DNA of 64,000 nt from Hordeum vulgare subsp. vulgare (taxonomy: Eukaryota; Streptophyta; Magnoliopsida; Poales; Poaceae), in the NCBI RefSeq assembly GCF_904849725.1, contig NC_058524.1, forward strand, positions 506,524,263 to 506,588,262. The letters run 5' to 3'. A program made the position numbers and the translations under genes. The notes under the pieces are model-generated. The model was not told where the DNA came from. It did not search any database and was given only the letters and a program-made list of their open reading frames with translations. Positions 25,284 through 56,832 of this stretch are shown here, piece by piece (position 1 is the first letter of the stretch; every line of letters starts with the position of its first letter).

Positions 25284-25480
25284 CACTAGTAGAAAAGGCC
25301 CATTTGTCCCGGTTCGAGAGGCCCATTAGCCCCGGTTCAGGAACCGGGACTAAAGGGTCGGGACTATAGGCAAAAACCTTTAGTCCCGGTTGGCTTACGA
25401 ACCGGGTCCAAAGGGTCTCCATGTGGCCACTGCGGGGAGCCCAGGGAGGAGGGCCTTTAGTCCCGGTTGCTCACACCAAC
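25284..25480. repeat. Left subterminal repeats of C2
   Basis: Forms of TTTAGTCCCGGTT and CCGGGACTAAAGG in both orientations follow the terminus. The same core is found at 56510-56832. Confidence 0.85.
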
Positions 25481-25613
25481 CGGGACCAAATGGCATCCAC
25501 GCGTCAGCATCTGGCCGGAGCTGGGTAATTTTTTGAATGGCGGGTTGTGGGCTTTTTCGAGGGTTAATTTAGTGATTTCATATGATGTTAGCTACCTAAT
25601 AGAGAGAAGTGTC

Positions 25614-25799
25614 CACTACTATAGAGAAGCCTAGTAGTAGCGCGGGTTTAGTGCCTACTAGTAGCGCGGTAACCCGCGCTACTAGTAAGGAGCTACAACT
25701 ATTACTTACCAGTAGCGCGTCTAAGACGCGCTACTGCTAAGACATATATCTATAGCGTGTATGATACCAGCGGTACTTATAAGACAACTATTAGTAGTG
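25614..25799. mobile_element. Possible small CACTA-type MITE
   Basis: 186 bases from CACTACTATAG to TTAGTAGTG, with internal inverted pairs of GTAGCGCGGGT and ACCCGCGCTAC typical of another CACTA family's subterminal part. Flanking triplets are GTC and TTC, one mismatch. Could instead be a rearranged fragment. Confidence 0.45.
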
Positions 25800-26429
25800 T
25801 TCTTGCAAACCCGCTCTATTAGTAATCTGTTTTTCATTTTTTTTATTTTTAGTGTATTTATACGCCGTTATACAAATTTTGATACAGTACCAATTAAGAG
25901 GTTGTTATATCATTATGTTCATGATGAATTATTATATCATTGTGAGGAAGAAACATGGCTTTTATTCATCCAAATGAATCAAAAGTGATCAAAAGTTGAA
26001 TTAGTAAGACGACGATCCTACTAATTCAACTTTTGGTCACTTTCGATCCATCCACATGAATCTAATCCGCTTTCCTCCCCCCAATGATATAATACCAATC
26101 ATGATCATAATAACAAATCATCATGATAATCATGATTAACATCATTGTCATATTAATATAAAAACTCCTGCATAACTATAGCTAATAATCATCATAGTCA
26201 TTTCCACCAACACTATTTAATCATCATTTTCGTCGATGAGACATCATATAACAAAGGTTGGTCACTAGTCATAATCACAACTCCTCCTCATCATCATCAT
26301 CAACTATAACACATTGTAGCACATAATAACACATTGTACCTAGGACCTACTCCTCTCTCATAGGACCTACTCTACCCTCTCTTAGGTAGAATATCATAAA
26401 ACAAGATAGGCCCTGACTCTCCACTATGG
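25800..26429. other. C2 3' non-coding region
   Basis: AT-rich, with CAT/ATC simple repeats near 26090-26310. It lies downstream of the B3-like gene on the minus strand and holds no recognisable frame. Confidence 0.5.
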
Positions 26430-27183
26430 AGAATGGAGATCATCTTGTCTCCAATTTTTGGCCTACGCACAATGTTGCTTCCAAGAAGCTCTCTACAATT
26501 AACCATACATTTTTCCAATCTTTGATTGTCATTTCATCGGTTTTAGAAATCCAGTATGGACAGGAGTGATGCAGATACCTAGGCTGACCTGGCCGTGTTG
26601 GTCGTATGCTCATAACATCAATGCAACCTCTTGGAAACATCAGATGAGGCACACAATCCTACGGGGTTTTCTTTTGAAAACATAGTAATAACTTTGTAGC
26701 TAGCAATGTAGTTTAGTTTTACAAGAATTTATGCAACATATTCACGGATGTCGTAATAGTAGAAAATCTTACCATGCAATCTCCATGCATGTTACCGTAG
26801 TTCACCACGTACACTAGTGGCACGTATTGACCATAATGTGGAGGAGTTTGGTGATAGGTATTGTCATTCTCAAGATCATTGATAAATGCGACAAGATGAT
26901 GTTTCTCCTTACAAGTTAATTATGCTTCATCATTGTAGTCATAGGTTTTGTCTACCATCTTCCGTACATTTTTTGCAGAACGAAAATAAGTTGTCAATGG
27001 AAATAAGTTGTCAACTACTTTTAAATAAACAATATAAATTACTTAATAAATATGGTTGAGAAACTCACATAATGGTAGAACTGGAGGGGTCTGCACATCG
27101 ACCCAGATGTCGATATTACCTTCAATTTCATCTTTCGGACGAATATCAAAGGTGATAAGCATATTAGGTTCAAATGCATAAGC
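26430..27183 (-). pseudogene. B3-like gene of C2, 3' half
   Basis: Continues the gene started at 50880, cut by C3 and K2. Coding pieces on the minus strand are 27183 to about 27070 (ending near LPLCEF), a piece around 26960-26790, and 26652-26440 (with RPGQPRYLHHSCPYWIS and IKDWKN). The order and spacing resemble the second half of two-domain grass proteins annotated with a B3-type DNA-binding pseudobarrel. The last part has lost its frame near 26520. Exon borders are approximate. Other reading: an unrelated transposon protein of unknown fold. Confidence 0.45.
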
Positions 27184-27790
27184 CACTACTGAAATTCAGA
27201 AATTTGTCGTCTGCCAAGGCGGACGGCAAAGGGTGCAACCACGGACAGCAAAGGCTTTGTCGTCGGTCAGCTGACGGCAAAGTAGATGGCAAAAAAAATC
27301 CGGTGAAGAGGTTCTTTGCCGTCTGCTTTATCAAAGCGGACGACAAAGAATCTTTGCCATGAGGGGGCAGACGGCAAAATAAATGGGACGGCACATATTG
27401 CAACGTCCCCATTAAGTGTTAACGGCAGGCCTCCTCTCTTTGCCGTCTGCCTTCCCCCCTTTGCCATGTGGGGGCAGACGGCAAAGAGGGGAGAGAGAGG
27501 GGGCAGATTACCCCCCCTTTGCCGTCTGCCTTCCCCCTTTGCCATGTGGGGGCAGACGGCAAAGAGGGGAGAGAGAGGGGGCAGATTCCCCCCTAAGCCG
27601 TCTGCCTTCCCCCCTTTGCCATGTGGGGGCAGACGACATAGGGGGGAATCTGCCCCCTCTCTCTCCCCCCTTTGCCTTGTGCCTTCCCCCCTTTGCCATG
27701 TGGGGCTGACGGCAAATAGGGGAGAGAGAGGGGGCAGATTCCCCCCTTTGCCATGTGGGGGTAGACGGCAAAGAGGGGAACCGGCCCCTT
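27184..27790. repeat. Left subterminal repeats of C3
   Basis: Five to six units of about 70 bases, each with CTTTGCCGTCTGCC, CCCCTTTGCCATGTGGGGG, CAGACGGCAAAG and GGGGAGAGAGAGGGGG. The unit is an internal inverted repeat, so hairpins can form. Open frames here are by-products of the repeat. Confidence 0.88.
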
Positions 27791-28440
27791 TTTTATTTAT
27801 TTTTTGTTATATCCAGCATTTTTAACAATAATCAGGATATATATATATTTTTTACATACATAAATTTCTTACCGTACTCATAACCATATTAAAATAACCT
27901 CTTATATCCAGCTTTCAAGTTGCATCCGTACCAAACCATATATTACACCAGTTTCATCCACGTGCATACAAAGTTTCATATATTCATATACTGCAATAGT
28001 TTCAATACAACCCATGGTACAAGAAACCATCTTCAAGCATTCCATCAATATTTTCCAGGCTTCCCGTGAAGTGAAGGTAATCTGCAAAATGACAAATAAG
28101 AAAGTTAGAAGAATAATACTAGATGAAGTAGTGTATATATAGGTTATTTCGGAGAGAAATTAGCTAAGTATAGACCATTTAGGAGCTAACTAAGCTAATT
28201 ATGTCATTTAGGTAGAACCCTAGCTAACTGTAGGTCGTTTCGGAGCTAACTTGGGTAAAATAGGTCATTCCGGAGCAAACTATGCTTATTAAGCCATTTT
28301 TGATCTAGCTAGGCTAATTATAGGCCATTTAATACCTAAGTTAGGGGGAATAGGTCATGTTGCAGCTAAGTAAGCCTTATTATGTCATTTATGAGAGAAC
28401 TTAGCTAACTATAGGTCATGTTTTATTAAATAGACCATTT
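27791..28440. other. C3 interior before the tandem array
   Basis: AT-rich, no gene seen. From about 28140 it holds degenerate copies of a unit built on AGGAGCTAACTAAGCTAATTA plus TAGGTCATTT, which is also the linker inside the array that follows. Confidence 0.6.
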
Positions 28441-31400
28441 AGGAGCTAACTAAGCTAATTATGTCATTTCGTAGGATAATTAGCCAATTTAGCCTTTCTT
28501 GGATGAGTCTAAGCTATATAGAAGAAGAGAAAGAGAAGAAGAAGTAAAAGAAGGAGGAGGAGGAGGAGGAGGAGAAGGAGAAGGAAGAGGAGAAGAAGAA
28601 GAAAATAAGAAGGAGAAGGAGAAGGAGGAAGAAGGAGGAAGAAGGAGGAAGAAGAAGGAGAAGGAGAAGGAGGAAGAAGGAGGAAGAAGAAGGAGAAGGA
28701 GGAGCTCCTTATCCTTCTTCTCCTCCTTCTTCTCCTTCTTCTTATCCTCCTCCCTCTCCTTCTTATTCTCCTCTTCTTCTTCTTCCTTCCTTTCATTTTT
28801 CCTCTTTCTTCTCCTCTTGTCCCCTTCTTCGGGCTAAATTGGCTAAGAATGCCTTTTTGGAGCTAATTAAGCTAATTATGTCATTTCGAGGATAATTTGC
28901 TAAGTATAGGTCATTTTTATTAAATAGACCATTTAGGAGCTAAGTAAGCTAATTATGTCATTTAGATGGATAATTAGCCAATTTAGCCTTTCTTGGATGA
29001 GTCTAAGCTACGTAGAAGAAGAGAAAGAGAAGAAGAAGTAAAAGAAGAAGGAGGAGGAGGAGGATGAGAAGAAGAAGGAAGAGGATACGAAGAAGAAAAG
29101 AAGAAGGAGAAGGAGAAGGAGGAAGAAGGAGGAAGAAGAAAGAGAAGGAGGAGCTCCTTCTCCTTCTTCTCCTCCTTCTTCTCCTTGTTCTTATCCTCCT
29201 CCCTCTCCTTTTTCTTCTTCTCCTCTTCTTCTTCTTCCTTCCTTTAATTTTTCCTCTTTCTTCTCGTCTTGTCCCCTTCTTCGGGCTAAATTGGCTAAGA
29301 ATGCCATTTTGGAGCTAATTATGTCATTTCGAGGATAATTAGATAAGTATATGCCATTTTTTATTAAATAGGTCATTTTGGAGCTAACTAAGCTAATTAT
29401 GTCATTTAGATGGATAATTAGCTAATTTAGCCTTTCTTTGATGAGTCTAAGCTACTTAGAAGAAGAGAAAGAGAAGAAGAAGTAAAAGAAGGAGGAGGAG
29501 GAGGAGGAGGAGAAGGAGAAGAAGAAGAAAAGAAGAAGGAGAAGGAGAAGGAGGAAGAAGGAGGAATAAGAAGGAGAAGGAGGAGCTCCTTCTCCTTCTT
29601 CTCCTCCTTCTCCTTCTTCTTATCCGCCTCCCTCTCCTTCTTCTTCTTCTCCTCTTCTTCTTCTTCCTTCCTTTCATTTTTCCTCTTTCTTCTCCTCTTG
29701 TCCCCTTCTTCGGGCTAAATTGGCTAAGAATGCCTTTTTGGAGCTAATTATGTCATTTCGAGGATAATTAGCTAAATATAGGTCATTTTTTATTAAATAG
29801 GTCATTTTGGAGCTAACTAAGCTAATTCTGTCATTTAGATGGATAATTAGCCAATTTATCCTTTCTTGGATGAGTCTAAGCTACGTAGAAGAAGAGAAAG
29901 AGAAGAAGAAGTAAAAGAAGGAGGAGGAGGAGGTGGAGGAGAAGGAGAAGGAGAGGAGAAGAAGAAGAAAAGAAGAAGGAGAAGGAGAAGGAGGAAGAAG
30001 GAGGAAGAAGAAGGAGAAGGAGGAGCTCCTTCTCCTTCTTCTTATCCTCCTCCCTCTCCTTCTTCTTCTTCTCCTCTTCTTCTTCTTCCTTCCCTTCATT
30101 TTTCCTCTTTCTTCTCCTCTTGTCCTCTTCTTCGTGCTAAATTGGCTAAGAATGCCATTTTGGAGCTAATTATGTCATTTAGAGGATAATTAGCTAAGTA
30201 TAGGTCATTTTTTATGAAATAGGTCATTTTGGAGCTAACTAAGCTAATTCTTTCATTTAGATGGATAATTAGCCAATTTAGCCATTCTTGGATGAGTCTA
30301 AGCTACGTAGAAGAAGAGAAAGAGAAGAAGAAGTAAAAGAAGGAGGAGGAGGAGGAGGAGGAGGAGAAGGAGAAGGAGAAGAGAAGAAGAAGAAAAGAAG
30401 AAGGAGAAGGAGAAGTAGGAAGAAGGAGGAAGAAGAAGGAGAAGGAGGAGCTCCTTCTCCTTCTTCTCCTCCTTCTTCTCCTTCTTATCCTCCTCCCTCT
30501 CCTTTTTCTTCTTCTCCTCTTCTTCTTCTTCCTTCCTTTCATTTTCCCTCTTTCTTCTCGTCTTGTCCCCTTCTTCGGGCTAAATTGGCTAAGAATGCCT
30601 TTTTGGAGCTAATTATGTCATTTCGAGGATAATTAGCTAAGTATAGGTCATTTTTTATTAAATAGGTCATTTTGGAGCTAACTAAGCTAATTATGTCACT
30701 TAGATGGATAATTAGCCAATTTAGCCTTTCTTGGATGAGTCTAAGCTACGTAGAATAAGATAAAGAGAAGAATAAGTAAAAGAAGGAGGAGGAGGAGGAG
30801 GAGAAGGAGAAGGAGAGGAGAAGAAGAAGAAAACAAGAAGGAGAAGGAGAATGAGGAAGAAGGAGGAAGAAGAAGGATAAGGAGGAGCTCCTTCTCCTTC
30901 TTCTCCTCCTTCTCCTTCTTCTTATCCTCCTCCCTCTCCTTCTTCTTCTCCTCTTCTTCTTCTTCCTTCCTTTCATTTTTCCTCTTTCTTCTCCTCTTGT
31001 CCCCTTCTTCGGGCTAAATTGGCTAAGAATGCCTTTTTGGAGCTAATTATATCATTTCGAGGATAATTAGCTAAGTATAGGTCATTTTTTATTAAATAGG
31101 TCATTTTGGAGCTAACTAAGCTAATTCTGTCATTTAGATGGATAATTAGCCAATTTAGCCTTTCTTGGATGAGTCTAAGCTACGTAGAAGAAGAGAAAGA
31201 GAAGAAGAAATAAAAGAAGGAGGAGGAGGAGGAGGAGGAGGAGAAGGAGAAGGAGAGGAGAAGAAGAAGAAAAGAAGAAGGAGAAGGAGAAGGAGGAAGA
31301 AGGAGGAAGAAGAAGGAGGAGGAGGAGCTCCTTCTCCTTCTTCTCCTTCTTCTCCTTCTTCTTATCCTCCTCCCTCTCCTTCTTCTTCTTCTCCTCTTCT

Positions 31401-31875
31401 TTTTCTTACTTCCTTTCATTTTTCCTCTTTCTTCTCCTCTTGTCCCCTTTTTCGGGCTAAATTGGCTAAGAATTCCTTTTTGGAGCTAATTATGTCATTT
31501 CGAGGATAATTAGCTAAGTATAGGTCATTTTGGAGCTAACTAAGCTAATTATGTTATGTAGATGGATAATTAGCCAATTTAGCCTTTCTTGGATGAGTCT
31601 AAGCTATGTAGAAGAAGAGAAAGAGAAGAAGAAGTAAAAGAAGGAGGAGCAGGAGGAGGAGAAGGAGAAGGAAGAGGAGAAGAAGAAGAAAAAGAAGAAC
31701 GAGAAGGAGAAGGAGGAAGAAGAAGGAAGAAGAAGGAGAAGGAGGAGCTCCTTCTCCTTCTTCTCCTTCTTCTTCTCCTTCTTCTTATCCTCCTCCCTCT
31801 CCTTCTTCTTCGTCTCCTCTTCTTCTTCTTCCTTCCCTTCTTCGGGCTAAATTGGCTAAGCTAATTATGTAATTT
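28441..31875. repeat. Tandem array of eight 422-494 base units with GA/TC inverted arms
   Basis: Unit marks (TTGGATGAGTCTAAGCT or close) at 28499, 28993, 29438, 29866, 30288, 30731, 31165 and 31589. Each unit has an AT-rich linker (GGAGCTAACTAAGCTAATTA), a GAAGAAGGAGGA-type arm, a central GGAGCTCC, a TCCTTCTTCTCC-type arm, and CTTGTCCCCTTCTTCGGGC. The arms are near-complementary over 100 bases or more, so each unit can fold into a long hairpin. Long Glu/Lys/Arg-rich or Ser/Leu-rich open frames on both strands are products of the composition. Confidence 0.93.
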
Positions 31876-32199
31876 AGATGGAAGTCTAGCTATCTTTTAT
31901 TCAAACACTAGAAATAACATACCTAAGTTAGGGTGAAGCACGGTGGCTCTGGCTTGTTTCACTTGGAGAAGGCTGCCCTGGAGAAGGCTCGACTGTAGAA
32001 GGGTCGTGCGATGCGTTTCGGGAGATATTCTGCACCAAACATCGTTTGCAATGTGTAGTTAGCATGAGGACACTCTTAAGATCACTACACTGAAATGAAA
32101 CTCACTGTCCTCGCCACGTTAATGACTGGCATCGGCGGAGGGACTTGGCCGTTCTTCTCGCACATAGACTGTACATTTGGTTTCGACAAGTCAAACTTT
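31876..32199. other. C3 sequence between array and TNPA-like gene
   Basis: About 320 bases without a convincing gene; it may hold the degraded 3' end of the TNPA-like gene. I see no conserved motif in it. Confidence 0.4.
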
Positions 32200-32978
32200 T
32201 TATTTATTAATGAAACGGACATTCAAATGCAAGATTTGAAATAACATGAAGAAGAAACTTACCACGAAGAGCTCGTATATGGCCCTGTTAGACGCATCAT
32301 TCCGTGCCCTCTCCGCCTCCACCAATGCAGTCGTCCTCTCCTCCAGCTCCCTAATTTCCTTATCCTTCTCCGCCATAGCCGCCTGCATTGCCTCTCTCTC
32401 TTTCTGAATAGCAGCCTACAACACAACTCATTGTTAGCAATGTAATCATATTGGTTCCAACGCACAACATAATGCGGAAAGATAGTTGAGTCCATTGGAG
32501 TCGCCTGGAAGGAAGCCTCTGGGACACGAGTCTCGTGGGTCGAAGGTTCGTCGACCTGAGGCTCGTCGACCCGAGGCTCGTGAACCGGAGACTGTGTAGC
32601 CTCCACCTTAGACGAATCCACCCTAGAAGTCCCGTGCTCAGGCGAATCAGCTTGGGGTGGTGGCGGAGACCGTGTAGCCCTACCTCTCCCACGACCATGT
32701 GTAACTTTAGTACAACATAAATACCAACATGAGTAATAAAATGTATATAAATACCAATATGCATACAACATGAGTACAACATAAATACCAACATGAATAC
32801 AACGTGTACCTTTAGTGCCTCTCGGCTGCGCGGGGGGTCGACCTCCTCTCATGAGGGGCGCTCCTTGCATAGTAGAGAGCAACACTCTCCGAAGAGGCGA
32901 GGCAGGAATGGAAGTACCCATCCCATCACCCGCCAACGAAGAAGCAGCCGCGGAGTGCTTTCGACCCTTTCCCACCAT
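32200..32978 (-). pseudogene. TNPA-like second gene of C3
   Basis: On the minus strand: a first exon with MVGKGRKHSAAAS and a Arg/Pro-rich tail (from 32978), a Pro/Glu-rich exon with VDEPQVDEPSTHETRV (about 32700-32460), and a coiled-coil exon with MAEKDKEIRELEERTTAL (about 32415-32260). This layout, a basic start then a Glu/Lys coiled coil, is that of the second gene of En/Spm-type plant transposons, which binds subterminal repeats. The C-terminal part is missing, perhaps displaced by the tandem array. Introns are inferred from breaks in frame. Confidence 0.6.
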
Positions 32979-33163
32979 CTTTCAACACCTGCCATGACAA
33001 AGAGTTAATGAAATTAGTACAACATAAATACCAACAGGAGTAATAAAATGTATATAATTTAAGTGTATCATCGTCATAAATACCAACATGACTAATAAAA
33101 ATTGAATACCTAACATGAACTCAAAATTTATATATAGTATAATAGTTGAATACCTGACATGAA

Positions 33164-33979
33164 CTAATAACAATCGTCCTCGTCTATATATGCTTTGGGG
33201 TCAATAAATGCATCATGATCATCACTATCATCAATAAATGCATCATCATCATCACTATAACGAAGAACATGTGGAAGGCCACCATTATGTAATCGGTCAA
33301 GAAGTGACAGGTCATCCGCAGCAGTAACCTCTTCTTCTTCTAGCTCTTCCTGTTCGGGCTCAGGGGTTAAGACGGATTCACTGTCGCTGTCTACTTCAAT
33401 GTTCTGGGGTGAAGTAGAGCGGTTCTTGAAACGTTTCTTGGACATACGTGTTTCTTGGAAGAATTCTCCTTCATATGTGTGTGGGTTAATGTGAGGTTCG
33501 TAATCCTCTTCATTGAGGGTAGGTGGTCTAAAATGTGGTGGCACTTCATAAACGACATCCCAACCTTTGAGATTTGGATCAGTTTGGCAGGCCCACGGTA
33601 GATAGAAAACTTGTGTCACCTGTTGAGCCGTAATATAGACATCGGGAACATCTAAGTGGGTGTTTTGGTTGATTTCGACTAGTCCTATATGTTCATGAGT
33701 CCTTCTAGTCTCCCTTGGCTCAAACCAATAACATTTGAAGACTACGACGGTCGGTGGGTTTTCACCATAGAATAGAAGTTCATAAATTGCTTCAACTCTT
33801 CCATAATACTCGGTGTCTCCTTCGCTGATAGTAGAGACAGAACAATTTGTAGTCTTTAGGTCGGGCATAGATAGCTCTTTGCCAAAGGTACGAAAGTGAT
33901 ACCCATTGATGTTGTATTTGTCAAATGAACGAACCTTATAGTCAAAACCATTAGCGACTTGTCTCAACTCGGCGTCCAT
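33164..33979 (-). pseudogene. DUF4216-containing part of the C3 transposase gene
   Basis: 271 codons, minus strand. It begins near a cluster typical of the DUF4216 block of plant TNP2-type proteins (FGKELSMPDL, YYGRVEAIYEL, FKCYWFEP, DVYITAQQV, FYLPW) and ends in an acidic tail with repeated DDHDAFID. DUF4216 usually forms the C-terminal part of the same transposase gene. Upstream it is separated by non-coding sequence from 34272. Function of the domain is unknown. Confidence 0.8.
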
Positions 33980-34271
33980 AGACTCTGCATCAGCCTACAA
34001 GTTTAATATGAAAGAATGGATGCATTAGCCGCAAATTAGACCAATAAATCAAATGGGCCCTTAATGGTAATTAATTACCCTTTGTTTGAACCAAGAGATG
34101 AAACCGGGATAGTCGCCTCCATGCTTTGCGAGAAGCTCATACTCTTCGACGGAATCCTTTTCGCTCACCGCTCCATCCGAGAATTCGGCGACGTATCGAC
34201 AATATCAAATATCCGGGAATAAGAGTAGTTCAAAGCGATTAGAAGTTGAGGTGCAATAAATTACCGAGAAC

Positions 34272-36820
34272 TTACTCGATGTACGGCCGCACTTCTGTTA
34301 GGTTGGTGAAGATATACAATGAAATGGTCCGCCATTCTTCGACATCCAACGATTTCCCTTTCGAAGCACCGGATGGTGCGAGCTTACCTTTGAATAGGCT
34401 GAGGTTGGATTGAACTTTTTCTCGATCGCCATAATTGTACCGAGGCTTTGGGTTATGCAAATGATGATTTTTGGCTTCGTAGTGTGCTGTCACGAAGTTT
34501 GCCGCCTCCTCAGTAATGAATGCCTCGGCCATCGATGCTTCAATTCTACGTTTATTTTTACACTTAGCTCGAAGCGTCTTCTGCATCCTCTAAGTTGAGT
34601 AGCGCCATCGATTTTGAACGCCCCCCCCCCATTCTTGCCTCGGTAAGGAGATGCAAAATCAAATGTTGCATTGGATTAAAGAAGCCCGATGGAAAGATCT
34701 TTTCTAATTTGCATATCAACTCCGGCGCCAACTCTTCCATTTCATCTAGCACGCGAGGCGATAGTTCTTTCACACAAAGAGAATGGAAGAAATAGCTCAG
34801 CTCTTCCAGTACTAGCCATTCATCCTCAGGGATAAAGCCACGCAACATCACCGGCATTACCCGCTCAATCCATATGTGCCAATCATGACTCTTGAGCCCA
34901 AATATTTTCAATTTCTCAAGACTCGCTCCCCTCTTTAGATTCGCATCATACCCATCGGGGAACATCAACCGCATTTTCACCCACAATAGCATTTCCCTCA
35001 TAGCTGGCCTTTCAAGATTGAACCATGCCTTTGGCTTCGCTATGCTTTGCTTTCCTTTCTGTTGTGCCAAGTTTTGCAATGGTCTATCACATAGAGCCTC
35101 CAGGTCGATTCTAGCCTTAGGATTATCTTTTGACTTCCCCTCTATGCCGAATAATGTACCAAAAATGGCCTCCGCAATATTCTTTTCAGTGTGCATCACG
35201 TCAATGTTGTGTGGGCAAAGGAGGTCTTTGAAGTAAGGGAGATCCCATAAGCATGACTTGTGAGTCCAGGCGTGTTCCGTATTATACCCTTTGAAGTATC
35301 CTGGACGCAAAGGATCAGGCTCGAGAGCATTTAACTGATCAAGGGTCTGTTGGCCTGTCAACGCAGCTGGTGCAGTGTTTTTGACAACTCTACCTTTGAT
35401 GAAATTCTTCTTGTCTTTTCTGAAATTATGGTCAGGATCCAGGAATTGTCTATGCATGTCGAAGCAAGAATACTTGCGACCAGCCTGCAGCCAAGGGAAC
35501 TAAAGAGCTGCCTTGCATGTGGTGCACGGGAACCTTCCATGCACACACCAGCCAGCGAATAGCGCAAACGCCGAATAATCATGCGTCGTGTACATGTACC
35601 ACACATGCATTTTGAAATTTGTTTTGGTAACCGTGTCGTAGGTCTTGATCCCATTATCCCAGGCTTCTTGCAACTCATCCTTAAGCGGCTGCATGTACAC
35701 ATTCTTCCGCGGATAGTTGGGCCCTGGAATTATCAACGTCAGGAAAATGTTATTTCTTTTCATAATCTCTCCGGGTGGCAAATTTAGTGGAATCACAAAT
35801 ACAGGCCAACAACTATATTGTGATGCCGTCATACCATACACATTGAACCCATCCGTGCTGATGGCAACTCTAGGTTGCCTTGGATCTTCCGATTAACCTT
35901 ATGTAATGCATCGAAGTGCCTCCACGCAAAAACCATCTGCAGTGTGTACTAGCATCTTGTTCCCATCCGCATCTAGTTCGGTTCTTTTGCCCAATTTGTG
36001 CCATGTCATCTGTCTGGCCGTCTCTTCGACCATGAAAAGATGTTGAAGTCTTGGTACGATTGGGAGATATCAAAGAACACTAATGGGGATTTTGGTCTGA
36101 TTCTTCTCACCCATGTCGTTGTCTACCACAATATACCTGGAAGAATTGCAAATGGGGCAATAGTTCAAGGCCGCATACTCAAGCCTAAATAAGGCACATC
36201 CATTCTCACAGGCATGTATCTTCTCATAGGGAATCTTAAGTACACGGAGGATTTTCGCTGACTGCTACAGGTTTGCACGCAGTACACGGCCTTTGGGTAG
36301 AAAGCATCCAAATATCGTCATCATCGCGTCGTAGCATTCTCTGCCTAGGTTGAATTGAGCCTTTAGAGCCTTTACTTGCGCGATGGCATCCAGCTGACAA
36401 AGCTCAGTCTGCTCGTGGAGAGGACGTTTTGAAGACTCCAGCATTTCATAGAAGGCCTTTGCAGATTCCTCCATCTCATCGTCCGAATCACGAGCATCAT
36501 CAAATTCTTGCACCATGTCTTCAATCCCGGTACCATGCTCGTCGGTGCGACGACGAATTACCTCAGCTCTGGCACGTTTGAGACTCACCATGAAAAGTCC
36601 ACACCGTATAATTAGGCGTAAAACCCCACTTCTGTAGGTGTTTACCCATTTCAAACTCTGTCTGCTTTTGCCAGTTGTCGCAGTTTGGACAGGGGCACCA
36701 TGTTTTATGCTGGTCATTTGCAAATGCGGCTCTCACAAACCCCCTGGTTTTTGTTAACCATTCATGGGTCATGTCTTTCTGACTAGGGTGACCAGTGTAC
36801 ATCCAAGCACGATCACTCAT
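34272..36820 (-). pseudogene. TNP2-type CACTA transposase of C3
   Basis: Minus strand, read from 36820. The N-terminal transposase-associated domain (WMYTGHP, CPCPNC) is at 36820-36580; the Transposase_21 core runs over 36580-35200 (ACENGCALFR, CPICNSSRY, then GWCVHGRFPC and HNIDVMHTEKN); the DUF4218 part is at 35200-34564 (MPVMLRGFIPEDEW), and a last exon is at 34586-34272. The gene would encode the enzyme that cuts and joins CACTA ends. It is broken: stops at 36265, near 36073 and at about 35500, a frame change near 36590, and frameshifts between about 35880 and 35940. Two or more stops fit C-to-T changes. Confidence 0.85.
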
Positions 36821-37539
36821 GTTGCCTAGCTAACTATGGGGGCACAAGAAATAAATATATAATTCATCATCTATATTCATACGCTAATCAAGTTTGTTAG
36901 TTTTATTATGTCCATGCAACCTACACGCTAATAGGTAAAGATAGGTCCTAATCCCACCCGAGTATGTGTAGACTGGGTTCGTTTTCCCATGCTCTGCTCC
37001 AGATGCGACGTAGAATTTCGGCAGCACCTCCCCGCTGTTCTCCTGATACATGTCTCGGCAATAAGCAGAGAAGATGTGTACCCGGAGAACAACAGGGGAG
37101 GCACTGACGAAATTCCGCATCGGATCCAGAGCACAGCATACGGGAAAACAAACCCAATCTACACATACTCGGGCTGTCCATGGATAATGTTGGACAATTC
37201 GAAAGGATGGCGGTTATAAAGATGCAAAGAAATGCATATTTATAGATGTCGCCCTTTCGAACGGGAGACGCATACTGGTCACGCATACTCATGATTGAAG
37301 AAACCTATAGCTAGCAAGTTTCATCGGCACGAAGACCGGGACAGAGCAAATTAAGGGGGTAAGAGGAGAAGTCATTTGTGCTCACCAACGAACGCAAGGG
37401 CGGAGCTCGTCCAACGCACGTGGAGGTCGTCGAACAACTGCACATTGAAATTCACCCGATCAACACAAATATGATGTTTTTATAATTAACATAATCGGAA
37501 AATATGTGACCTAACTCATAATTTACAAAATTATGACCC
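36821..37539. other. C3 5' flank of the transposase gene
   Basis: No gene. It holds two inverted copies of a segment of about 100 bases (around 36950-37060 and 37070-37180, with TCTCCTGATACATG-like cores and CGGAATTTCG), which can pair as a cruciform. From 37321 it matches the start of C1. Confidence 0.5.
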
Positions 37540-40420: not shown

Positions 40421-40422
40421 AT

Positions 40423-40435
40423 TGGTATCAGAGAC
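40423..40435 (+). promoter_or_regulatory. K2 primer binding site
   Basis: TGGTATCAGAGAC two bases after the LTR. It is complementary to the 3' end of initiator tRNA-Met, the usual primer of copia elements, with one change near the end. Confidence 0.85.
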
Positions 40436-40471
40436 ACGTCTCTTTATTAAGGGTTTCACCACCCGAAGAGT

Positions 40472-43003: not shown

Positions 43004-43007
43004 TCTA

Positions 43008-46520: not shown

Positions 46521-47238
46521 AGCTAGGCACATTGCACCTTACTATGCATTTTATCTCGTTATAGATGTAGGCATGGACATAGGGGGAGTGGTGTTCTCTC
46601 AATGAACTCTTCCTCCCCCCATTATGCATAAATTGATCTAGTCTTTCACTTTAGCCATTACCAAATGGCACTTGCGCTTCAAAGACGAGCGTTGGTCATG
46701 AACCCAAGGATAATTCTTCGCGGTGTCATACCTTTGTCTCAAACATAGGTGGCATCGGCCACCGCCCCCCCCCCCCACCTTTCTCTCATATGGAAGAAAG
46801 GATAAAAATGACAAGTCAGTATATCTTGCTGGTGCTATCTTCTTATTTTCACTAATTGTCATTTGCCCACGTTCTTCTCATCTCCTAGGTCCCGTTGTGA
46901 CATTTGCAGCGGTACTACCGCCAGGGGTAGCGGTACTACCGCCAGGACGCCAGTGGTACTACCGCCATGGGTAGCGGTACTACCACCAGGACCCCGGCGG
47001 TACTACTGCGAGGGGTAGCGGTACTACCGCCAGGACCCCAGCGGTACTACCGCCAGGGGTAGCGGTACTACCGCCAGGACCCCAGTCTACCATGACCTAA
47101 CTAGGATATTTTTAGGGCTGTCTCAGGGGGAGTGGTACTACCGCCAGGGGTAGCGGTACTACCGCACTGACCCCAGCGGTACTACCGCCAGGGGTAGCGG
47201 TACTACCGCCAGAAGGATTCTCTGTTTAATCCTTTCAT
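46521..47238 (+). other. K2 spacer between pol and ORF3 with palindrome array
   Basis: Contains twelve copies of AGCGGTACTACCGC at 46903-47212, spaced by CAGGGGTAG or CAGGACCCC. This is the reverse complement of the LTR palindrome AGCGGTAGTACCGC. Polypurine-like tracts TAGGGGGAGTGG (about 46579) and CAGGGGGAGTGG (about 47124) are also present. No coding frame. Confidence 0.85.
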
Positions 47239-48717
47239 GTGCTTGGCAATGAGTGTTTACTTTTCTGCCTTTTCTTGTTCATTGCCTTGACTCCTTTTGT
47301 CGCTCTTTGTCGGTGTGTGTTTTGTGTCACAGGTAGTGGTCGCCGCTCGAACCCGCCACGGGACACACAGTCCAAGCATTATCGCAATCCAGAGGCTCCA
47401 GAGGGCTCCGCCACTTCAGGTCTACCACCCATAAAGAAGGCCTTCAAGAAGACCGCTCACAAGGACAAGGGGATCAACGTTCGCACCATGCCCCCTAAGG
47501 ACTTTCTGCGGTTCTGCAACCAAAACCACTATCTCCAAGAGAGGGCTGTGATCAACAATGTCGAGCATGTTTGGGCAAAGGATCACTGCAGGATCTACCG
47601 TGATATCATCAAGCATTTCAAGAAGATTTTTGTTCCCGTTTAGTGGATTGACTTGGCTCACCTTCAGCAAAACCTGGACTACTTTGGTGACGCTCTCTCT
47701 CTGATTGACAAGTTGGGAATTAAGGACATCATCTCCTTCAAGACAGACATTGATCCAAATGTTGTTGCCCAGTTCTATGTCACGGTTCACTTCTCGCCTG
47801 ATGACGAGCGCTCCCTGGTTTGGATGACTGGGACTCAGAAGATGATAGGCTCCTGGCGTGAATTCATGGCATTCCTCAAGGTTGATTTTCAGGGAGCTGA
47901 CACTCCACTTGGGTCGCGTCCTCATGCTGCAGCTCCCACTGATAGGGCCTCTGCCAAGGACAGGTTGCAGCAACTCTATGTGAAGAAAGGTGTGCTCCCC
48001 AGGCATCTGGACATCATGCATCGGATCTTCCGCAACACCCTCTTTCCTCGCATTGGCAACTTTGACGAGGTACATGGCTCTCTAGCTGAGATGCTACTGC
48101 TTTGTGAGGAGGCTATGACTAAGGAGTCTGCCCCTCTTGATATTTCTGATGTGATGTTCACTGAGCTCTGGAACTGCATCATGATGCACAAGGTTCCCAT
48201 CTACGGGCCCTACTTGTTTGCTTATATCAGTCAGAAGTGGCAAGACACCTATCCGCTTGAGGAGTTATACATCCAGGCTGACTACTTTGTGCACGATCCT
48301 ATCAAGCTTTGCGTCAAGGACAAATGGGCCAACCCATCAACTTCATGTCAGCACATGGACACTGACACAGAGACTGCTGCTGACAGAGGAACCGCTTCTC
48401 AGTCCCGCTCTTCTGCCATGCCATCTTGGGCCATGAAATTGCAAGATAAGATGAAGACTCTCTTTTGTATGCAGGCTAAGGGCCAGTATCAGATGCGCGT
48501 GGCTCAGAAGGAGAACCGTCAGCGGCACAAGCGTATCCTGAGGACACTTGATGTTGACATCTCCAACGGATCAGAGGACGACATCACTCCAGAGTCTGAT
48601 TGGATGCGGGCTCAAGGTTACCAGTGGTCTGGCGCAGAGGAGGAGGAGGACAATGAAGAGGAGCAGGACGATCTGGATGCTACAGACGAGTCTGGGGATG
48701 ATGAGGATGAGCAGTGA
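47239..48717 (+). pseudogene. K2 ORF3 (plant transposon protein)
   Basis: 492 codons in a single frame with one TAG at 47641-47643 (fits CAG-to-TAG). N-terminal basic part, a middle of globular type (QFYVTVHFSPDDERSLVWM, LPRHLDIMHRIFRNTLFPR, IYGPYLFAYI), and a strongly acidic C-terminal tail (EEEEDNEEEQDD). It aligns in pattern with K1 ORF3 around the FY-V/S-T-V/A-HF block. I see no signal peptide or membrane segment, so an envelope role is not supported. It is the family often called 'putative plant transposon protein'. The true start may be further 5' through splicing. Confidence 0.8.
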
Positions 48718-48760
48718 CCACCTATGGCGTTAGGTGTTCCCCTTTTTTGGTGTCTTGTGC

Positions 48761-48772
48761 CAAAGGGGGAGA
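48761..48772 (+). promoter_or_regulatory. Second polypurine-like tract of K2
   Basis: CAAAGGGGGAGA, some 260 bases before the LTR-proximal tract. Multiple such tracts are a described Sirevirus trait. Confidence 0.6.
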
Positions 48773-49017
48773 GAGTCTAGGAGCTGGATTTGCTTTGAGA
48801 GTTGAACTTTGCTTAGCTTTGCTTATCTTTCGTGTTTGCTTCGAACTTGGTTTTCTTCTATTTTGCTATCTTTGCTTTGTGTGACGTGAGACATGAACTA
48901 GTGTGAGATTTATTTCCATCATATGTTGTGAGTCATATGCTCCTTATTTTTCATATATCTCTATCTTTTTGTTCACATGTTATTCACTGTGGAAATCCGG
49001 TATTGTCATCAATCCAC

Positions 49018-49031
49018 CAAAAAGGGGGAGA
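49018..49031 (+). promoter_or_regulatory. K2 polypurine tract
   Basis: AAAAAGGGGGAGA directly before the 3' LTR start at 49033. Primer for plus-strand DNA. Confidence 0.85.
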
Positions 49032-49032
49032 T

Positions 49033-50480
49033 TGTTGGGACATAGTTTATGCCTAAGTAATTTTGGAGATTGATGATAGTACCGCAAGTGTGTTAAGATT
49101 TCAGATAACACACGTCAACGGCACAAGACGACTCGCCCCCTCTTTCGTGGAACAGAAGCACGGTGTTCTCTACGATTCTATTTATTTGAGTCATAGGAAA
49201 GCCATACTATTAAGAGGGGAACCGTAGTGGAAAGGTTTGGGTGGAATCAATCTTGCATGTGCACACTTCACCTCTTTTCCCCCTTGCCGGCAACTTTGGA
49301 GTGGCTCCCGCCTTGGTGTTTCTTTCTTCTTTGCAAATGGTCCCCCAGCGGTAGTACCGCTGGGCCTAGCGGTAGTACCGCTGGCCCTAGCTGTAGTACC
49401 GCTGGAGTGCTAGCGGTAGTACCGCTGCAGCCATCAGTAGTATCGCTAGCTGGCGGTAGTACCGCCCCTGGTCAGCGGTAGTACCGCTCCAGGAGCTTAG
49501 TACCGCATGCCTAGCGGTTGTACGTGGACGGACCTTTTTGCGAAGACTTTCTTGGCGGTGGTAGTGCTTATGCACTACCAGGGGGCCAGCGGTAGTACCG
49601 CTGCAGCCAGCGGTAGTACCGCTGGAGTGCTAGCGGTAGTACTACTGCAGCCAGCGGTATTACCGCTGGAGTGCCAGCGGTAGTACCGCTAGGCACGGGC
49701 TGTGAGTGGGAAAACGGTTGGATTTCCCCCCCCCACTATATAAGGGGTTCTTCTAGCTGTGGAACCTTATCTCTTACCCTCCCAAGCTCCATTGTTGCTC
49801 CCAAAGCTCAAAAGTGCCTGATCTCTCTCCCTAGCCAATCAAACTTGATGATTCTTTAGGGATTGGTTGAGAAGGCCTAGATCCACACTTCCACCAAGAG
49901 AAAAGTTGATTCCCCCACCAATCCCTTGCGGATCTTGTTACTCTTGGGTGTTTGAGCATCCTAGACGGTTGAGGTCACCTCGAAGCCACATTCCATTGTG
50001 GTGAAGCTTCGTGGTCTTGTTGGGAGCCTCCAAGCTTTGTGTGGAGTTTTCCCCAACCTTGTTTCTAAAGGTTCAGTCGCCGCCTTCAAGGGCACCTATA
50101 GTGGAATCACGGTACCTTGCATCGTGCGAGGGCGTGAGGAGAATACGGTGGCCATAGTGGCTTATTGGGGAGCATTGTGCCTCCACACCGCTCCAACGGA
50201 GACGTACTTCCTGTCAAAGGGAAGGACCTTCGGTAACACATCCTCGTCTTCATTGGTTCCACTTGTGATTATCTCTAACCTTTACTTTGTGTATGCTTAT
50301 GTTGTTGTCGTTCCCTTACTTGCCTTAGTAGCTCTCGTTGTTAGCTTCATTACGGTTCACCCCATTGTTGTTATATTTGTGAACCCGTATGTTCTTTACC
50401 CTAACTTGCTAAGATTAATTAAAAATTGGTCGTTGCCCATTCACCCCCCCCCCCTCTAGTCAACCATATCGATCCTTTCA
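49033..50480 (+). mobile_element. K2 3' LTR
   Basis: TGTTGGGACATAG to CGATCCTTTCA, 1448 bases. About thirteen intact or changed copies of the AGCGGTAGTACCGCT palindrome at 49347-49690 against six in the 5' LTR. Also a ten-base insertion near 50130 and scattered substitutions. TATATAA at 49737-49743. Confidence 0.92.
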
Positions 50481-50880
50481 CTTGCATAATTCTACCCAAG
50501 TTTTGCATTCAAAAAAGGAGTAGGTGTCTACATTGTACAACTTTACGACAAAAGTATAACCATGCTCGGTCCTAAAGTAAACTATCGTTACCTCCATAGT
50601 TTTTTCAGTACTGAAACCAATCTTATCCAAGACATAAATTCTTGCATGGCAAGGGATACGCTAGTAGAATAGTAAAAAATAAAAATTATAAGTTGAAGCA
50701 AAAGAAGTCATGCTTAATTACGAAAAAAGACTTCTCGTTGTGACTTACTGTATCCACTTCGAAGTCCTCATCCAGCATGATGCTGAAGCGCCTATCATCT
50801 ACTAGGTAAGGCGTGTCGCAGACGCCGCGCTCGTCTTGGTAGTATTCGCACATAACGAATTTCCTTTCGTCGTCAGACAT
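50481..50880 (-). pseudogene. B3-like gene of C2, 5' half
   Basis: The first coding exon starts ATG at 50880 (MSDDERKFVM) and ends near 50752 at a donor CAGTAAGTC; an intron follows to about 50670, then an exon (ARIYVLDKIGFS, GYTFVVKLY, ECKTWVELC) that runs into the K2 target copy. The frame continues at 27183 when C3, K2 and their target copies are removed. The pattern of short beta strands and the two repeated halves resemble plant B3-type pseudobarrel DNA-binding proteins carried by wheat transposons. It might bind C2 ends, as TNPA does in Spm; this is inference. Family call is by recall, without profile search. Confidence 0.5.
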
Positions 50881-51890: not shown

Positions 51891-52060
51891 CCATTTCGTC
51901 CCGGTTAGGGCCCCGAACCGATACTAAAGGCCAATTTCCAATAGCCCAAAGGGCGAGAAGAAGAGACCTTTAGTCTCGGTTGGTGCCACTAACCGACACA
52001 AAAGGGCATCTTCCAAGTCGGCTGGTGGCACAAACTAGGACTAAAGGTATGTGCCTACCA
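51887..52060. repeat. Internal block of C2 subterminal-type repeats
   Basis: Forms of CGTCCCGGTTAGG, ACCGATACTAAAGG, CTTTAGTCTCGGTTGG and GGACTAAAGG in both orientations, like the two ends of C2 but some 4.8 kb from the right end. They lie just upstream of the leader of the B3-like gene. Confidence 0.75.
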
Positions 52061-52289: not shown

Positions 52290-54840
52290 AATTTTTTTAA
52301 ATATAGTTTTTTTTTGTTTTTTACTTTATTTATTTAATTTTGTGACTAACTTTACTAAAAAATATATTTTTGAGTGATTCTTTTTCATACTATTTACTAT
52401 TATTGTGTTTTTATCATTATATTCAATTTGGTAGGTTTTAGGTTATTTTAAATGACTGTTTTAATCAAAAACACATCTGTTACAAAAGGGATTTCATTTT
52501 TCTAAACTTATTTGAACTCAAGACTTTTTGTGTGTTCAAAACGCACCATTCAAGGCCACATCATCAATTTTCAACACTTTCCGAGTTCATTTGGTATTTT
52601 TATTGCATTTACTGATTTTTTTGAGCTAAATGGCCCAGAAATTGAAAACCACTAGAAATGATATCTTAATAGGCTGAAAGTTGGCATGGTATCATCATTT
52701 CACCCACATAGCATGTGCAAAAAAGTTGAGAGGGTTGCGGCAAAATCTGGATGCACTTCGTGTACAAATCGGACAATCTCTTTCGAAGTGTCAGGGTTTT
52801 TAATCAATAACAGATCTATTACAAAAGGGATTTTATTTTATTGAACTTATTTGAACTCAAGACTTTTTTTGTGTTCAAAATGCACCATTCAAGGCCACAT
52901 CATCAATTTTCAACACTTTCCGAGTTCATTTGGTATTTTTCATGCATTTACTGATTTTTTTTAGCTAAATTGACCAGAAATTAAAAGCACTACAAACGAA
53001 ATGTAAATAGGTCGAAAGTTGGCATGGTATCATCATTTCACCCACATAGCATGTGCAAAAAACTTAAGAGGGTTGCGGCAAAAAGTGGATGCACTTCGTG
53101 TACAAAACAGACAATCTCTTACGAAGTATCATGGTTTTTAATCAAAAACTGATCTGTTACAAAAGGGATTTTATTTTATTGAACTTATTTGAACTCAAGA
53201 CTTTTTGTGTGTTCAAAATGCACCATTCAAGGCCACATCATCAATTTTCAACACTTTCCGAGGTCATTTGGTATTTTTCATGCATTTACTCATTTTTTAT
53301 ATCTAAATGGCCCAGAAATTGAAAAACACTACAAATGAACTCTCAATAGGTTGAAAGTTGGAATGGTATCATCATTTCACCCACATAACATGTGCTAAAA
53401 AGTTGGGAGGGTTGCGGCAAAAAATGGATGCACTTCGTGTAGAAATCGTACAATCTCTTTCGAAGTATCAAGTTTTTTTATAAAAAATAGATCTGTTACA
53501 AAAGGGATTTCATTTTTTTGAACTTATTGGAATTCAAGACTTTTTGTTTGTTCAGAATGCACCATTCAAGGCCACATCATCAATTTTCAACACTTTCTGA
53601 GTTCATTAGGTATTTTTTATGCATGTACTGATTTTTTGAGCTAAATGGCCCAGAGATTGAAAAGCACTACAAATGAACTCTGAATATGTTGAAAGTTTGC
53701 ATGGTATCATCATTTCACCCACATAGCATGTGCTAAAAAATTTAGAGGGTTGCGGCAAAAACTGGATGCACTTCGTGTGCAAATCGGCAATCTCTTTCGA
53801 AGTATCACGGTTTTTAATCAAAAATAGATCTGTTACAAAAGGGATTTCATTTTTTAAACTTATTGGAGCTCAAGAGTTTTTGTGTGTTCAAAATGCACCA
53901 TTCAAGGCCACATCATTAATTTTCAACACTTTCTGAGTTCATTTGGTATTTTTCATGCTTTTAATGATTTGTTTTGAGCTAAACGGTCGAGAAATTGAGA
54001 AGCACTACAAATGAACTCTGAATAGGTTGAAAGTGGGCATTGTATCATCATTTCACCCACATAGCATGTGCTAAAAAGTTGAGAGTGTTGCGGCAAAAAC
54101 TGGATGCACTTTGCGTACAAATCAGACAATCTCTTTCGATGTATTAGTGCTTTTAATCAAAAACAGATCTGTTACAAAAGGGATTTCATTTTTTTGAACT
54201 TATTGGAACTCAAGACTTTTTGTGTGTTCAAAATGCACCATTCAAGGCCACATCATCAATTTTCAACAGTTTATGAGTTCATTTGGTATTTTTCATGCAT
54301 TTACTTATTTTTTAGCTAAATGGCCTAGAAATTCAAAAGCACTACAAATGAACTCTGAATAAGTTAAAAGTTGGCATGGTATCATCATTTCACCCACATA
54401 ACATGTGCTAAAAAGTTGAGAGGGTTGCGGCAAAAACTGGATGCACTTCGTGTACAAATCGGACAATCTCTTTCGAAGTATCACGGTTTTTAATCAAAAA
54501 CAGATCTGTTACAAAAGGGATTTCATTTATTTGAACTCGAGACTTTTTGTGTGTTCAAAATGCAACATTCAAGGCCACATCATCAATTTTCAACCCTTTC
54601 TGAGTTCATTTGGTATTTTTCATGCATTTACTCGATGTTTGTTTTTCACTTTATTTATTTAATTTTGTGAATAAATTTACTAAAAAATAGATTTTTGAGT
54701 GATTCTTTTTCCTGCTATTTAATATTACTGTGTTTTTATCATTAATTCAATTTGGTAGGTTTTAGGTTACTTTAAATGATTGTTTTAATCAAAAACAGAT
54801 CTGTTACAAAAGGGATTTCATTTTTTTGAACTTATTTGAA
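52290..54840. repeat. 338-base tandem array in C2, bracketed by a direct repeat
   Basis: The mark TTACAAAAGGGA occurs at 52480, 52819, 53157, 53496, 53833, 54172, 54509 and 54804: six intervals of 337-339 bases and a last one of 295. The mark GGATGCACTTCG repeats at 52749, 53087, 53426, 53764, 54102 and 54439. A segment of about 200 bases (TTTATTTAATTTTGTGA... type) occurs both at 52300-52500 and 54645-54840, closing the array on both sides. AT-rich; no gene. Confidence 0.92.

Positions 54841-55670: not shown

Positions 55671-55673
<3 letters not shown>

Positions 55674-55713
<40 letters not shown>
55674..55713. repeat. AT dinucleotide microsatellite
   Basis: About twenty AT units in the intron of the exonuclease gene. 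Likely to vary in length. Confidence 0.95.
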
Positions 55714-55715
<2 letters not shown>

Positions 55716-55759
55716 TCCCACGTTTTTGCAAATATGCAACAAGCTAGACATATTGCATA

Positions 55760-55935
55760 TTGCTATCCAATGGAACCTAGAGAGATCACTATAGCTATCC
55801 AATGGAACCTAGAGAGATCACGATAGCTATCCAATGGAACCTAGAGAGATCACTAGCTATATGCAATTTTCGTAACTATGACACATCATATTGCTATCAA
55901 ATAGAACCTAGAGAGATCACTAGCTATATGCAATT
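55760..55935. repeat. Short tandem repeat in the exonuclease intron
   Basis: Four to five units of 33-50 bases with GCTATCCAATGGAACCTAGA and GAGATCAC. Further single copies of the core lie near 56080-56135. Confidence 0.8.
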
Positions 55936-56509
55936 TTCATAACCTTGGATCAAAGAACGCCGCATAAAATTGTTTCACTACAACTAAAGAGAAATTGATC
56001 TTTATAGGATTCCAAAATGGAACATATTGCTATCGATCCTATGCAATTTTCATATCTTATGAATTTATCAAGAAACACTCAATTAACTATCCAATGGAAC
56101 ATATATAGAAACTGCATATTGCTATCCAATGGAACCTGCATACCTCGCCCATTGGAAGATCAAGACATGGTGTTTGAAACATAATTGGATAACGGCAACA
56201 CCTCGTTGATCGGTCGTGTACTACAGATCAAGCCCCAAGAACTTCTCATGATCCATCACGCCGACAAGCCACCGTTCCTTCAACTGTATAAGAAAATGCG
56301 ACACCTCCCTGCTCTCGTTCGTGTAGACGACATCAAGCTTGTTCGTGCCATGTGCGAGCACCTCTGTGAATTCAGATGGCATGGTGGAAGAAAAGAACGG
56401 TAGAAGAGAGGGGAAGAAGAGAGCGAGAGAGGAGAGAGGGGAAGAAGAACAGAGAAATGGCGAGACTCTGCTTCGGTTGTGCTTTTGCGAAGCGGGATAC
56501 AAACCATTT

Positions 56510-56832
56510 GGGCCTTTAGTCCTGGGTTGAGCCACCAACCGGGACTAAAGGGTGATACGAATGGTTGCCACCACCACTCCGTCCCGGTTTGCTCTACTAA
56601 ACATGACTAAAGGGGGACATGAATGGTCCACCTGGTCCCGGTTTGACCCACCAACCGGGACTAACAGGGGATACGAACGGTCCCTGTCTATTGGTCTCGG
56701 TTCGTGTCTCGAACCGGTACCAAAGGGTTGACACGAACCGGGACCAATGGCCCACCATAGGTCCCGGTTCGTTGGCGAACCCAAACTAATGGGATTTCTT
56801 CAAGTGTACCAAAGCCCTATTTTCTACTAGTG
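56510..56832. repeat. Right subterminal repeats of C2
   Basis: Seven or so copies of CCGGGACTAAAGG or GTCCCGGTT forms up to the end TTTTCTACTAGTG at 56832; target copy AGT follows. The exonuclease leader abuts this block. Confidence 0.88.

What the first reader, a model, noticed from the sequence alone, without database searches (positions are those of the whole stretch)
25284..56832. CACTA element C2 carries a B3-like protein gene and a DEDDy exonuclease gene but no recognisable transposase
Seen: matched CACTA ends with AGT target copies, and two spliced minus-strand genes inside. One shows exonuclease motifs I-III, the other resembles two-domain B3-type DNA-binding proteins of wheat. Known: Spm-type elements encode TNPA (binds subterminal repeats) and TNPD/TNP2 (cleaves ends). 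Inference: the B3-like protein could do the TNPA job on GGGACTAAAGG repeats and the exonuclease could act on transposon ends or on RNA; together they would be an accessory module moved by a partner's transposase. This is the best candidate in the window for an undescribed system.
Basis: partly seen in the sequence, partly recalled or inferred. Interest (0 to 1): 0.75.

Follow-up and report, generated by a model that had tools for sequence, protein, structure and literature searches.

The report
Grass transposon carrying two hitchhiking genes
This is an old, broken copy of a common grass 'jumping gene' that carries two extra genes, an exonuclease and a likely DNA-binding protein; both recur in many related copies but the copies examined show no clear sign of being kept working, so the element itself is fairly ordinary.

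The parts
25284..25296 (+). C2 left terminal inverted repeat; TSD AGT at 25281-25283
56820..56832 (-). C2 right terminal inverted repeat; TSD AGT at 56833-56835
25284..27183 (.). C2 own DNA, left part
   Evidence: aligns as one 92% block to a second complete element, E2 = L002+L042
50486..56832 (.). C2 own DNA, right part
   Evidence: aligns to E2 in blocks of 86-93%
56144..56382 (-). Exonuclease exon 1; in-frame TAG at 56221-56223 at the motif-I glutamate codon
55088..55499 (-). Exonuclease exon 2 (motifs II and III), open
52459..54632 (.). 6.5 copies of a 338-bp tandem repeat between the two genes
51892..52047 (.). Inner cluster of 4 subterminal-type repeats (CCGGGACTAAAGG, up to 2 mismatches)
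50749..50880 (-). B3-like gene, exon 1
50486..50660 (-). B3-like gene, exon 2, first part (up to the Copia)
26378..27183 (-). B3-like gene, rest of exon 2 and later exons; TAA at 26920-26922; frame slip in a run of A in the last exon
25614..25824 (+). CACTA-like inner end (CACTACTATAGAGAAGCC...) with GCGCTACTAGTA-type repeats; the region aligns in E2; resembles the end of the B3-only elements
27184..39182 (-). Nested CACTA of another family (ends CACTACTGAAATTC.., TSD AGC), not part of C2
35500..35892 (-). Transposase_21 (tnp2) match in the nested CACTA, E 6.2e-42; DUF4218 at 34564-35499, DUF4216 at 33164-33994
39191..50480 (+). Copia LTR retrotransposon inserted in the B3-like gene, TSD TTTGC/CTTGC

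Best explanation
C2 is an old, TNP2-less CACTA element of 8.25 kb, later interrupted by a TNP2-bearing CACTA and a Copia. It belongs to a high-copy family in which a WRN-like DEDDy exonuclease gene sits just inside one end and a B3-like gene just inside the other. Shown: the ends, the insertions, the recurrence of both genes, and the broken state of both genes here. Inferred: it moves by TNP2 supplied in trans by another element, and its two genes are hitchhiking cargo. Each gene is the cargo of its own, separately amplified CACTA family, and the C2 family arose when an exonuclease-type and a B3-type element were joined. The genes are not needed in cis. Any function would have to be in trans from a few source copies, and no clear trace of that was found.
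For: Second complete element E2 (8,695 bp, TSD ATG) with the same order exonuclease - 338-bp repeats - B3-like gene, without the two insertions and with no TNP2 hit; E6 (3,313 bp, TSD GTT) with the exonuclease and the 3' part of the B3-like gene. 9 of 40 left-end hits have B3 exon 2 at 1.6-1.8 kb in C2's arrangement (a tenth, at 3.3 kb, does not), 0.13 pairs within 30 kb expected; 7 of 40 pair with a right-end hit (among them the window, E2 and E6), 0.015 expected. An exonuclease CACTA family (CACTAGTGGAAAA end) sampled by its noncoding end: 15 of 15 loci, one being the query's own, carry the gene; 6 of 14 assessable are intact. Variation there fits neutrality: singletons 26 syn / 79 non / 2 stop, shared 5 / 22 / 4, p 0.82 and 0.51. 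B3 exon 2, 9 copies, omega 0.82-1.09. C2-family exonuclease with both exons: 0 of 6 copies intact.
Against: Nine wheat B3-like proteins stay 307-310 aa at 67-87% identity to P0071, which would be unlikely without constraint, though gene prediction favours open frames (two more relatives there are 288 aa). Exonuclease exon 2 gave omega 0.49 in the 27 copies chosen by protein score, a choice that biases it down. Daron et al. report most CACTA-captured genes of wheat 3B at dN/dS 0.2-0.6 against Brachypodium homologues (passages). The five catalytic sites are not clearly more conserved than the rest (p 0.13 and 0.34), nor less. E4, E5 and E8 carry the exonuclease but the B3-like gene was not reached. 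No element with C2's ends plus TNP2 was found; the search for it did not complete.
Confidence: 0.7

Rival explanations
1. The B3-like protein is a trans-acting anti-silencing or TNPA-like factor encoded by a few source copies, binding repeats in CACTA elements; the exonuclease is unrelated cargo.
For: B3-like fold of residues 31-141. It is the only gene my queries recognise in two complete 3.7-3.8-kb CACTA elements, so one likely binding-protein gene per element, as VANC genes sit in VANDALs (PMC10398659 passages). A 338-bp tandem repeat of changing copy number lies beside the gene in the C2 family (6.5, 7.5, 18.9 copies), recalling the tandem-repeat targets of VANC. Nine wheat relatives with open frames of 307-310 aa.
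Against: Near-neutral copy-level variation; nearly the same exon 2 consensus sits in elements with unrelated subterminal repeats; the second domain has no assigned fold; no binding or expression data.
Confidence: 0.15
2. The two genes form a dedicated two-protein accessory module of C2.
For: Both present in 3 of 3 complete C2-type elements read, the B3-like gene only as a 3' piece in one.
Against: Each gene stands without the other in the 3 complete elements read of two other families; 0 exonuclease-B3 pairs within 30 kb among 149 and 150 top-scored places (capped lists, limited power); both broken here; 0 of 6 intact exonucleases in the family; near-neutral variation.
Confidence: 0.05
3. The whole 31.5-kb span is one autonomous element with TNP2.
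For: TNP2, DUF4216 and DUF4218 matches lie inside the span.
Against: They lie between their own TIRs with TSD AGC; E2 continues across that point without the insertion; the start of an element of the same nested type, with TNP2, occurs inside E8 at another site.
Confidence: 0.02

Closest known systems
Exonuclease-carrying wheat CACTA families DTC_famc5 (Vincent) and DTC_famc6 (TAT), Daron et al. 2014, PMC4290129 (passages)
   Same: A putative 3'-5' exonuclease gene repeated in three and seven copies of two CACTA families on chromosome 3B, read there as capture with DNA exchange between the two families.
   Different: No B3 gene is mentioned in the passages seen; family identity with C2 was not tested, as their sequences were not at hand.
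Pack-CACTA / gene-capturing CACTA elements (PMC13317346 passages)
   Same: Elements with TIRs that carry captured DNA inside; TNP2-less by recall.
   Different: Here the cargo is a recurring, high-copy part of a family rather than a one-off gene fragment.
Spm/En (TNPA, TNPD) of maize (PMC2613891 passages)
   Same: CACTA ends, subterminal repeats; a transposon-borne gene for a (here predicted) DNA-binding protein.
   Different: No TNP2 in C2's own DNA; the B3-like gene is shared by elements with different subterminal repeats.
VANC genes of VANDAL elements (PMC10398659 passages)
   Same: A transposon-borne gene for a (here predicted) DNA-binding protein, and noncoding tandem repeats that change in number.
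   Different: VANDALs are MULEs; no homology or demethylation was tested here.

Membership tests
CACTA (En/Spm) superfamily | CACTA terminal inverted repeats | tested here: met
   exact over 13 bp
CACTA (En/Spm) superfamily | 3-bp target site duplication | tested here: met
   AGT for C2; ATG for E2; GTT for E6
CACTA (En/Spm) superfamily | subterminal repeats near both ends | tested here: met
   17 in C2's own DNA, 0.15 expected, most in 100 shuffles 1
Autonomous CACTA element | own TNP2 | tested here: not met
   TNP2 only inside the nested element; no hit in C2's own DNA, E2 or E6 with the nested element's TNP2 pieces as queries. So C2 is filed as a non-autonomous CACTA.
DEDDy 3'-5' exonuclease (DNA_pol_A_exo1, WRN-like) | Pfam profile above the curated score | tested here: met
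   44.7 bits against 23.6 for the window copy read with X at the stop; profile of relatives matches WRN exonuclease 2fbt, E 8.1e-5
DEDDy 3'-5' exonuclease (DNA_pol_A_exo1, WRN-like) | catalytic D-x-E, D, Y-x3-D in relatives | tested here: met
   D52 33 of 36, E54 35 of 36, D102 35 of 37, Y178 35 of 36, D182 33 of 36 non-gap rows of A3
DEDDy 3'-5' exonuclease (DNA_pol_A_exo1, WRN-like) | intact catalytic residues in the window copy | tested here: not met
   stop at the motif-I glutamate: a pseudogene of the family
B3 DNA-binding superfamily | Pfam B3 profile above the gathering score | tested here: not met
   No B3 match for the window copy at E<=10; best relative 24.2 bits against 30.1, E 3.2e-5. 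Hence 'B3-like', not filed as a member.
B3 DNA-binding superfamily | B3 fold | tested here: inconclusive
TNPA-type binding protein | binds the subterminal repeats of its element | not testable with these tools
   Indirect evidence against: B3-only elements U46 and U43 have 0 GGGACTAAAGG-type repeats.
Vincent / TAT CACTA families | sequence identity to the published families | not tested
   Reference sequences not at hand.

The most novel reading that the evidence does not exclude
This grass genome holds a very abundant CACTA family whose only recognised gene encodes a B3-fold protein, a plant transcription-factor fold recruited as the transposon's own trans-acting DNA-binding or anti-silencing factor. 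It was passed between CACTA families with unrelated subterminal repeats, C2 being one recipient.
Probability: 0.15. Interest if true: 0.65.

Novelty: new variant of a known kind. Interest (0 to 1): 0.35.

Why it matters
If the genes are cargo, the case shows how a 4.2-Gb grass genome fills with at least hundreds (150 of 150 scored for each gene), perhaps thousands, of stretches that look like exonuclease or transcription-factor genes; gene annotation and family counts need to mask them. If the B3-like protein works for the transposon, it would be a plant transcription-factor fold turned into a transposon factor, testable by binding and methylation assays.

Tried and rejected
Rejected: one 31.5-kb element with its own TNP2 (empty site in E2); TNP2 in E8 as the family's own (it lies inside a nested CACTA starting at E8 12421, whose other end was not reached); a Ulp1-type second gene in the L014 element (recalled likeness only; no Pfam match). 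Led nowhere: the search for related loci in viral contigs (no relative); the exonuclease structure model (pLDDT 39, not used); profile search of solved structures for B3 (no B3 chain); NCBIfam (nothing above a cut-off); IQ-TREE codon model (no omega printed), so only Nei-Gojobori and variant counts are given; the intron as neutral yardstick (alignment unreliable between families). VIA-align re-scores Foldseek's own list and is not an independent search. In one search locus L007 was read in the wrong orientation, so its end was not tested. L007 had no exonuclease hit on either strand and L003 only a broken exon 1. One search cut the window's B3 exon 2 a few bases short; redone. Rows dropped before counts: L011-L013 (near-identical copies) and L003, L009 and L065, L073 (L074 gave no exon 2). 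One partial last row was left out of the list used (149 places). In the checkpoint note I wrote 27 of 30 for the CACTAGTGG ends; the recount is 26 of 30. Confidence in the best explanation was lowered from 0.72 to 0.70 on checking, because the 30-kb co-occurrence test has limited power.
Full report
WHAT IS THERE. The ends claimed for C2 are real: CACTAGTAGAAAA at 25284 and its exact 13-bp inverted copy ending at 56832, with AGT on both outer sides. C2's own DNA holds 17 CCGGGACTAAAGG-type repeats (up to 2 mismatches); Markov-1 shuffles give 0.15 on average and 1 at most in 100. They lie in three clusters: both ends and an inner one at 51892-52047.

The span is a nest of three elements. A CACTA of another family lies at 27184-39182 (ends CACTACTGAAATTC.., TSD AGC) and carries Transposase_21 (E 6.2e-42), DUF4218 and DUF4216 matches. 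A Copia lies at 39191-50480 (TSD TTTGC/CTTGC; two LTR stretches 93% and 89% identical). C2's own DNA is 25284-27183 plus 50486-56832, 8,247 bp. So the title's 'no recognisable transposase' holds for C2 itself, not for the interval.

THE TWO GENES HERE. Exonuclease: exon 1 at 56144-56382, exon 2 at 55088-55499; Pfam DNA_pol_A_exo1 44.7 bits against a cut-off of 23.6, read with X at the stop. An in-frame TAG stands at the motif-I glutamate codon. B3-like gene: exon 1 at 50749-50880; exon 2 is split by both insertions; later exons run to 26378. It has a TAA at 26920-26922 and a frame slip in a run of A in the last exon, which recurs in other copies: of 12 copies aligned the run has 6 A in 6, 5 A in 5 and 7 A in 1. 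Both genes of this copy are dead.

COPIES IN THE SOURCE GENOME. The window lies in a 4.21-Gb assembly of 180 contigs; contigs C2-C7 are 562-666 Mb. That fits a diploid D-genome goat grass; this is inference. All searches score only the best candidates, so counts are lower bounds. Right end: 40 scored of 2,346 candidates. Exonuclease: 151 matches from 150 scored of 6,136. B3-like gene: 242 matches from 129 scored of 5,102 and, with the window's own exon 2, 150 matches from 150 scored of 3,151.

E2 (L002+L042) is a complete 8,695-bp element, TSD ATG, with exonuclease, 7.5 copies of a 338-bp repeat, inner subterminal repeats and the B3-like gene in C2's order; it lacks the nested CACTA and the Copia and gives no TNP2 hit. 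E6 is a complete 3,313-bp deletion form, TSD GTT, with the exonuclease and the 3' part of the B3-like gene. E4, E5 and E8 carry the exonuclease, but the B3-like gene was not reached in the stretch read (nested DNA, or a 338-bp array of 18.9 copies in E8). Of the 7 right-end loci fetched besides the window's own (of 39), 5 have both exonuclease exons, L003 a broken exon 1, L007 none. 9 of 40 left-end hits have B3 exon 2 at 1.6-1.8 kb in C2's arrangement, a tenth at 3.3 kb in another; 7 of 40, among them the window, E2 and E6, pair with a right-end hit at 2.9-50.6 kb; one of these (C5:264.63 Mb) also has the B3 exon. So the two genes do recur together in this family.

THEY ALSO LIVE APART. Of the 30 best exonuclease loci, 26 have, upstream of exon 1, the end of another CACTA family, CACTAGTGGAAAA. 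One member, L014+L040, runs 211-7864 (TSD TTC, read by eye) with the exonuclease, no B3 or TNP2 hit, and a different second gene without Pfam match. The B3-like gene is the only gene my queries recognise in two complete small CACTA elements, U46 (3,846 bp, TSD ACT) and U43 (3,703 bp, TSD AGT); their other ORFs were not scanned against Pfam. Of the 40 best ends of that family (of 2,191 candidates), 12 have a B3 hit within 3 kb; of 40 exonuclease-family ends 14 have an exonuclease hit within 3 kb. In 5 of 5 loci chosen by the noncoding 3' end the last B3 exon is present; exon 2 is near-complete in 3. Between 149 exonuclease and 150 B3 places 0 pairs lie within 30 kb, 0.32 expected by chance; as both lists are capped, this has limited power and the complete elements weigh more. 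C2 keeps an inner CACTA-like end at 25614 with GCGCTACTAGTA-type repeats, as E2 does and as the B3-only elements show, and an inner subterminal cluster. I infer that the C2 family was made by joining an exonuclease-type and a B3-type element.

SELECTION. The exonuclease family sampled by its noncoding end (15 loci, one being the query's own): 15 of 15 carry the gene, 6 of 14 assessable are intact. In 14 of these sequences variants fit neutrality: singletons 26 syn / 79 non / 2 stop, shared 5 / 22 / 4 (omega 0.85 and 1.23; p 0.82 and 0.51); 4 stop variants are shared between copies, so broken copies probably multiplied. In the 27 copies chosen by exon-2 protein score, exon 1, outside that match, gives 1.17 and exon 2 0.49; within the C2 family 0.76 and 0.98; between the two 0.72 and 1.13. 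Consensus against consensus: exon 1 0.89, exon 2 2.2, small counts. C2-family copies with both exons: 0 of 6 intact. B3 exon 2 in 9 copies: 0.82-1.09; between the two group consensuses 0.71 on 7 changes. Catalytic sites are not clearly more conserved than other sites (p 0.13 and 0.34). Against a pure-cargo reading: nine wheat B3-like proteins keep 307-310 aa at 67-87% identity to P0071, without DNA to test; and Daron et al. report most CACTA-captured genes of 3B at dN/dS 0.2-0.6 against Brachypodium homologues (passages).

MECHANISM. Most likely C2 is moved by TNP2 in trans, as non-autonomous CACTA elements are (for Spm/En: PMC2613891 passages), and carries both genes as cargo. The TNPA proposal meets a direct difficulty: U46 and U43 carry a closely similar B3 exon but 0 GGGACTAAAGG-type repeats and 19 and 18 GGTGCGCCACTA-type ones, whereas the diversity of CACTA binding proteins is thought to follow that of their repeats (PMC2613891 passages). 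A looser trans role, like VANC or TnpA in loss of DNA methylation (PMC10398659 passages), stays open at about 0.15.

WHAT IS KNOWN. Daron et al. 2014 (PMC4290129, passages) report a putative 3'-5' exonuclease gene in three copies of Vincent and seven of TAT on wheat chromosome 3B, as captures with DNA exchange between the families. Ulp1-type captures in CACTA are also known (PMC2528002 passages). I saw no report of a B3 gene as recurring CACTA cargo in the listings; six papers in all were opened for passages. The library lacks most subscription journals.

Noticed in passing
52459-54632; E2; E8 (L052+L050+L008): A 338-bp tandem repeat between the two genes varies from 6.5 to 18.9 copies and is absent from the deletion form E6.
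   Followed up: partly
Protein P0074 (Aegilops tauschii, 427 aa): A gene model joins a bHLH-MYC_N domain (PF14215, E 1.1e-16) to the transposon's B3-like protein, possibly exon shuffling by a B3-carrying CACTA or an annotation artefact.
   Followed up: no
L010-L013, G000 C7:29.12-29.28 Mb: Four exonuclease loci with the same broken exon 1 at about 54-kb steps: probably a tandem segmental duplication.
   Followed up: no
28421-31739: Eight repeats spaced 422-494 bp with long purine-rich and pyrimidine-rich inverted stretches inside the nested TNP2-bearing CACTA.
   Followed up: no
26378-27183 and 50486-50880: The window's B3-like gene looks mosaic by eye: its first half is nearer the P0073 group, its second half nearer the P0069-P0071 group.
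   Followed up: no
L014+L040, 4865-6324: The other exonuclease CACTA family has a different second gene with no Pfam match, so the second slot of these elements changes between families.
   Followed up: partly
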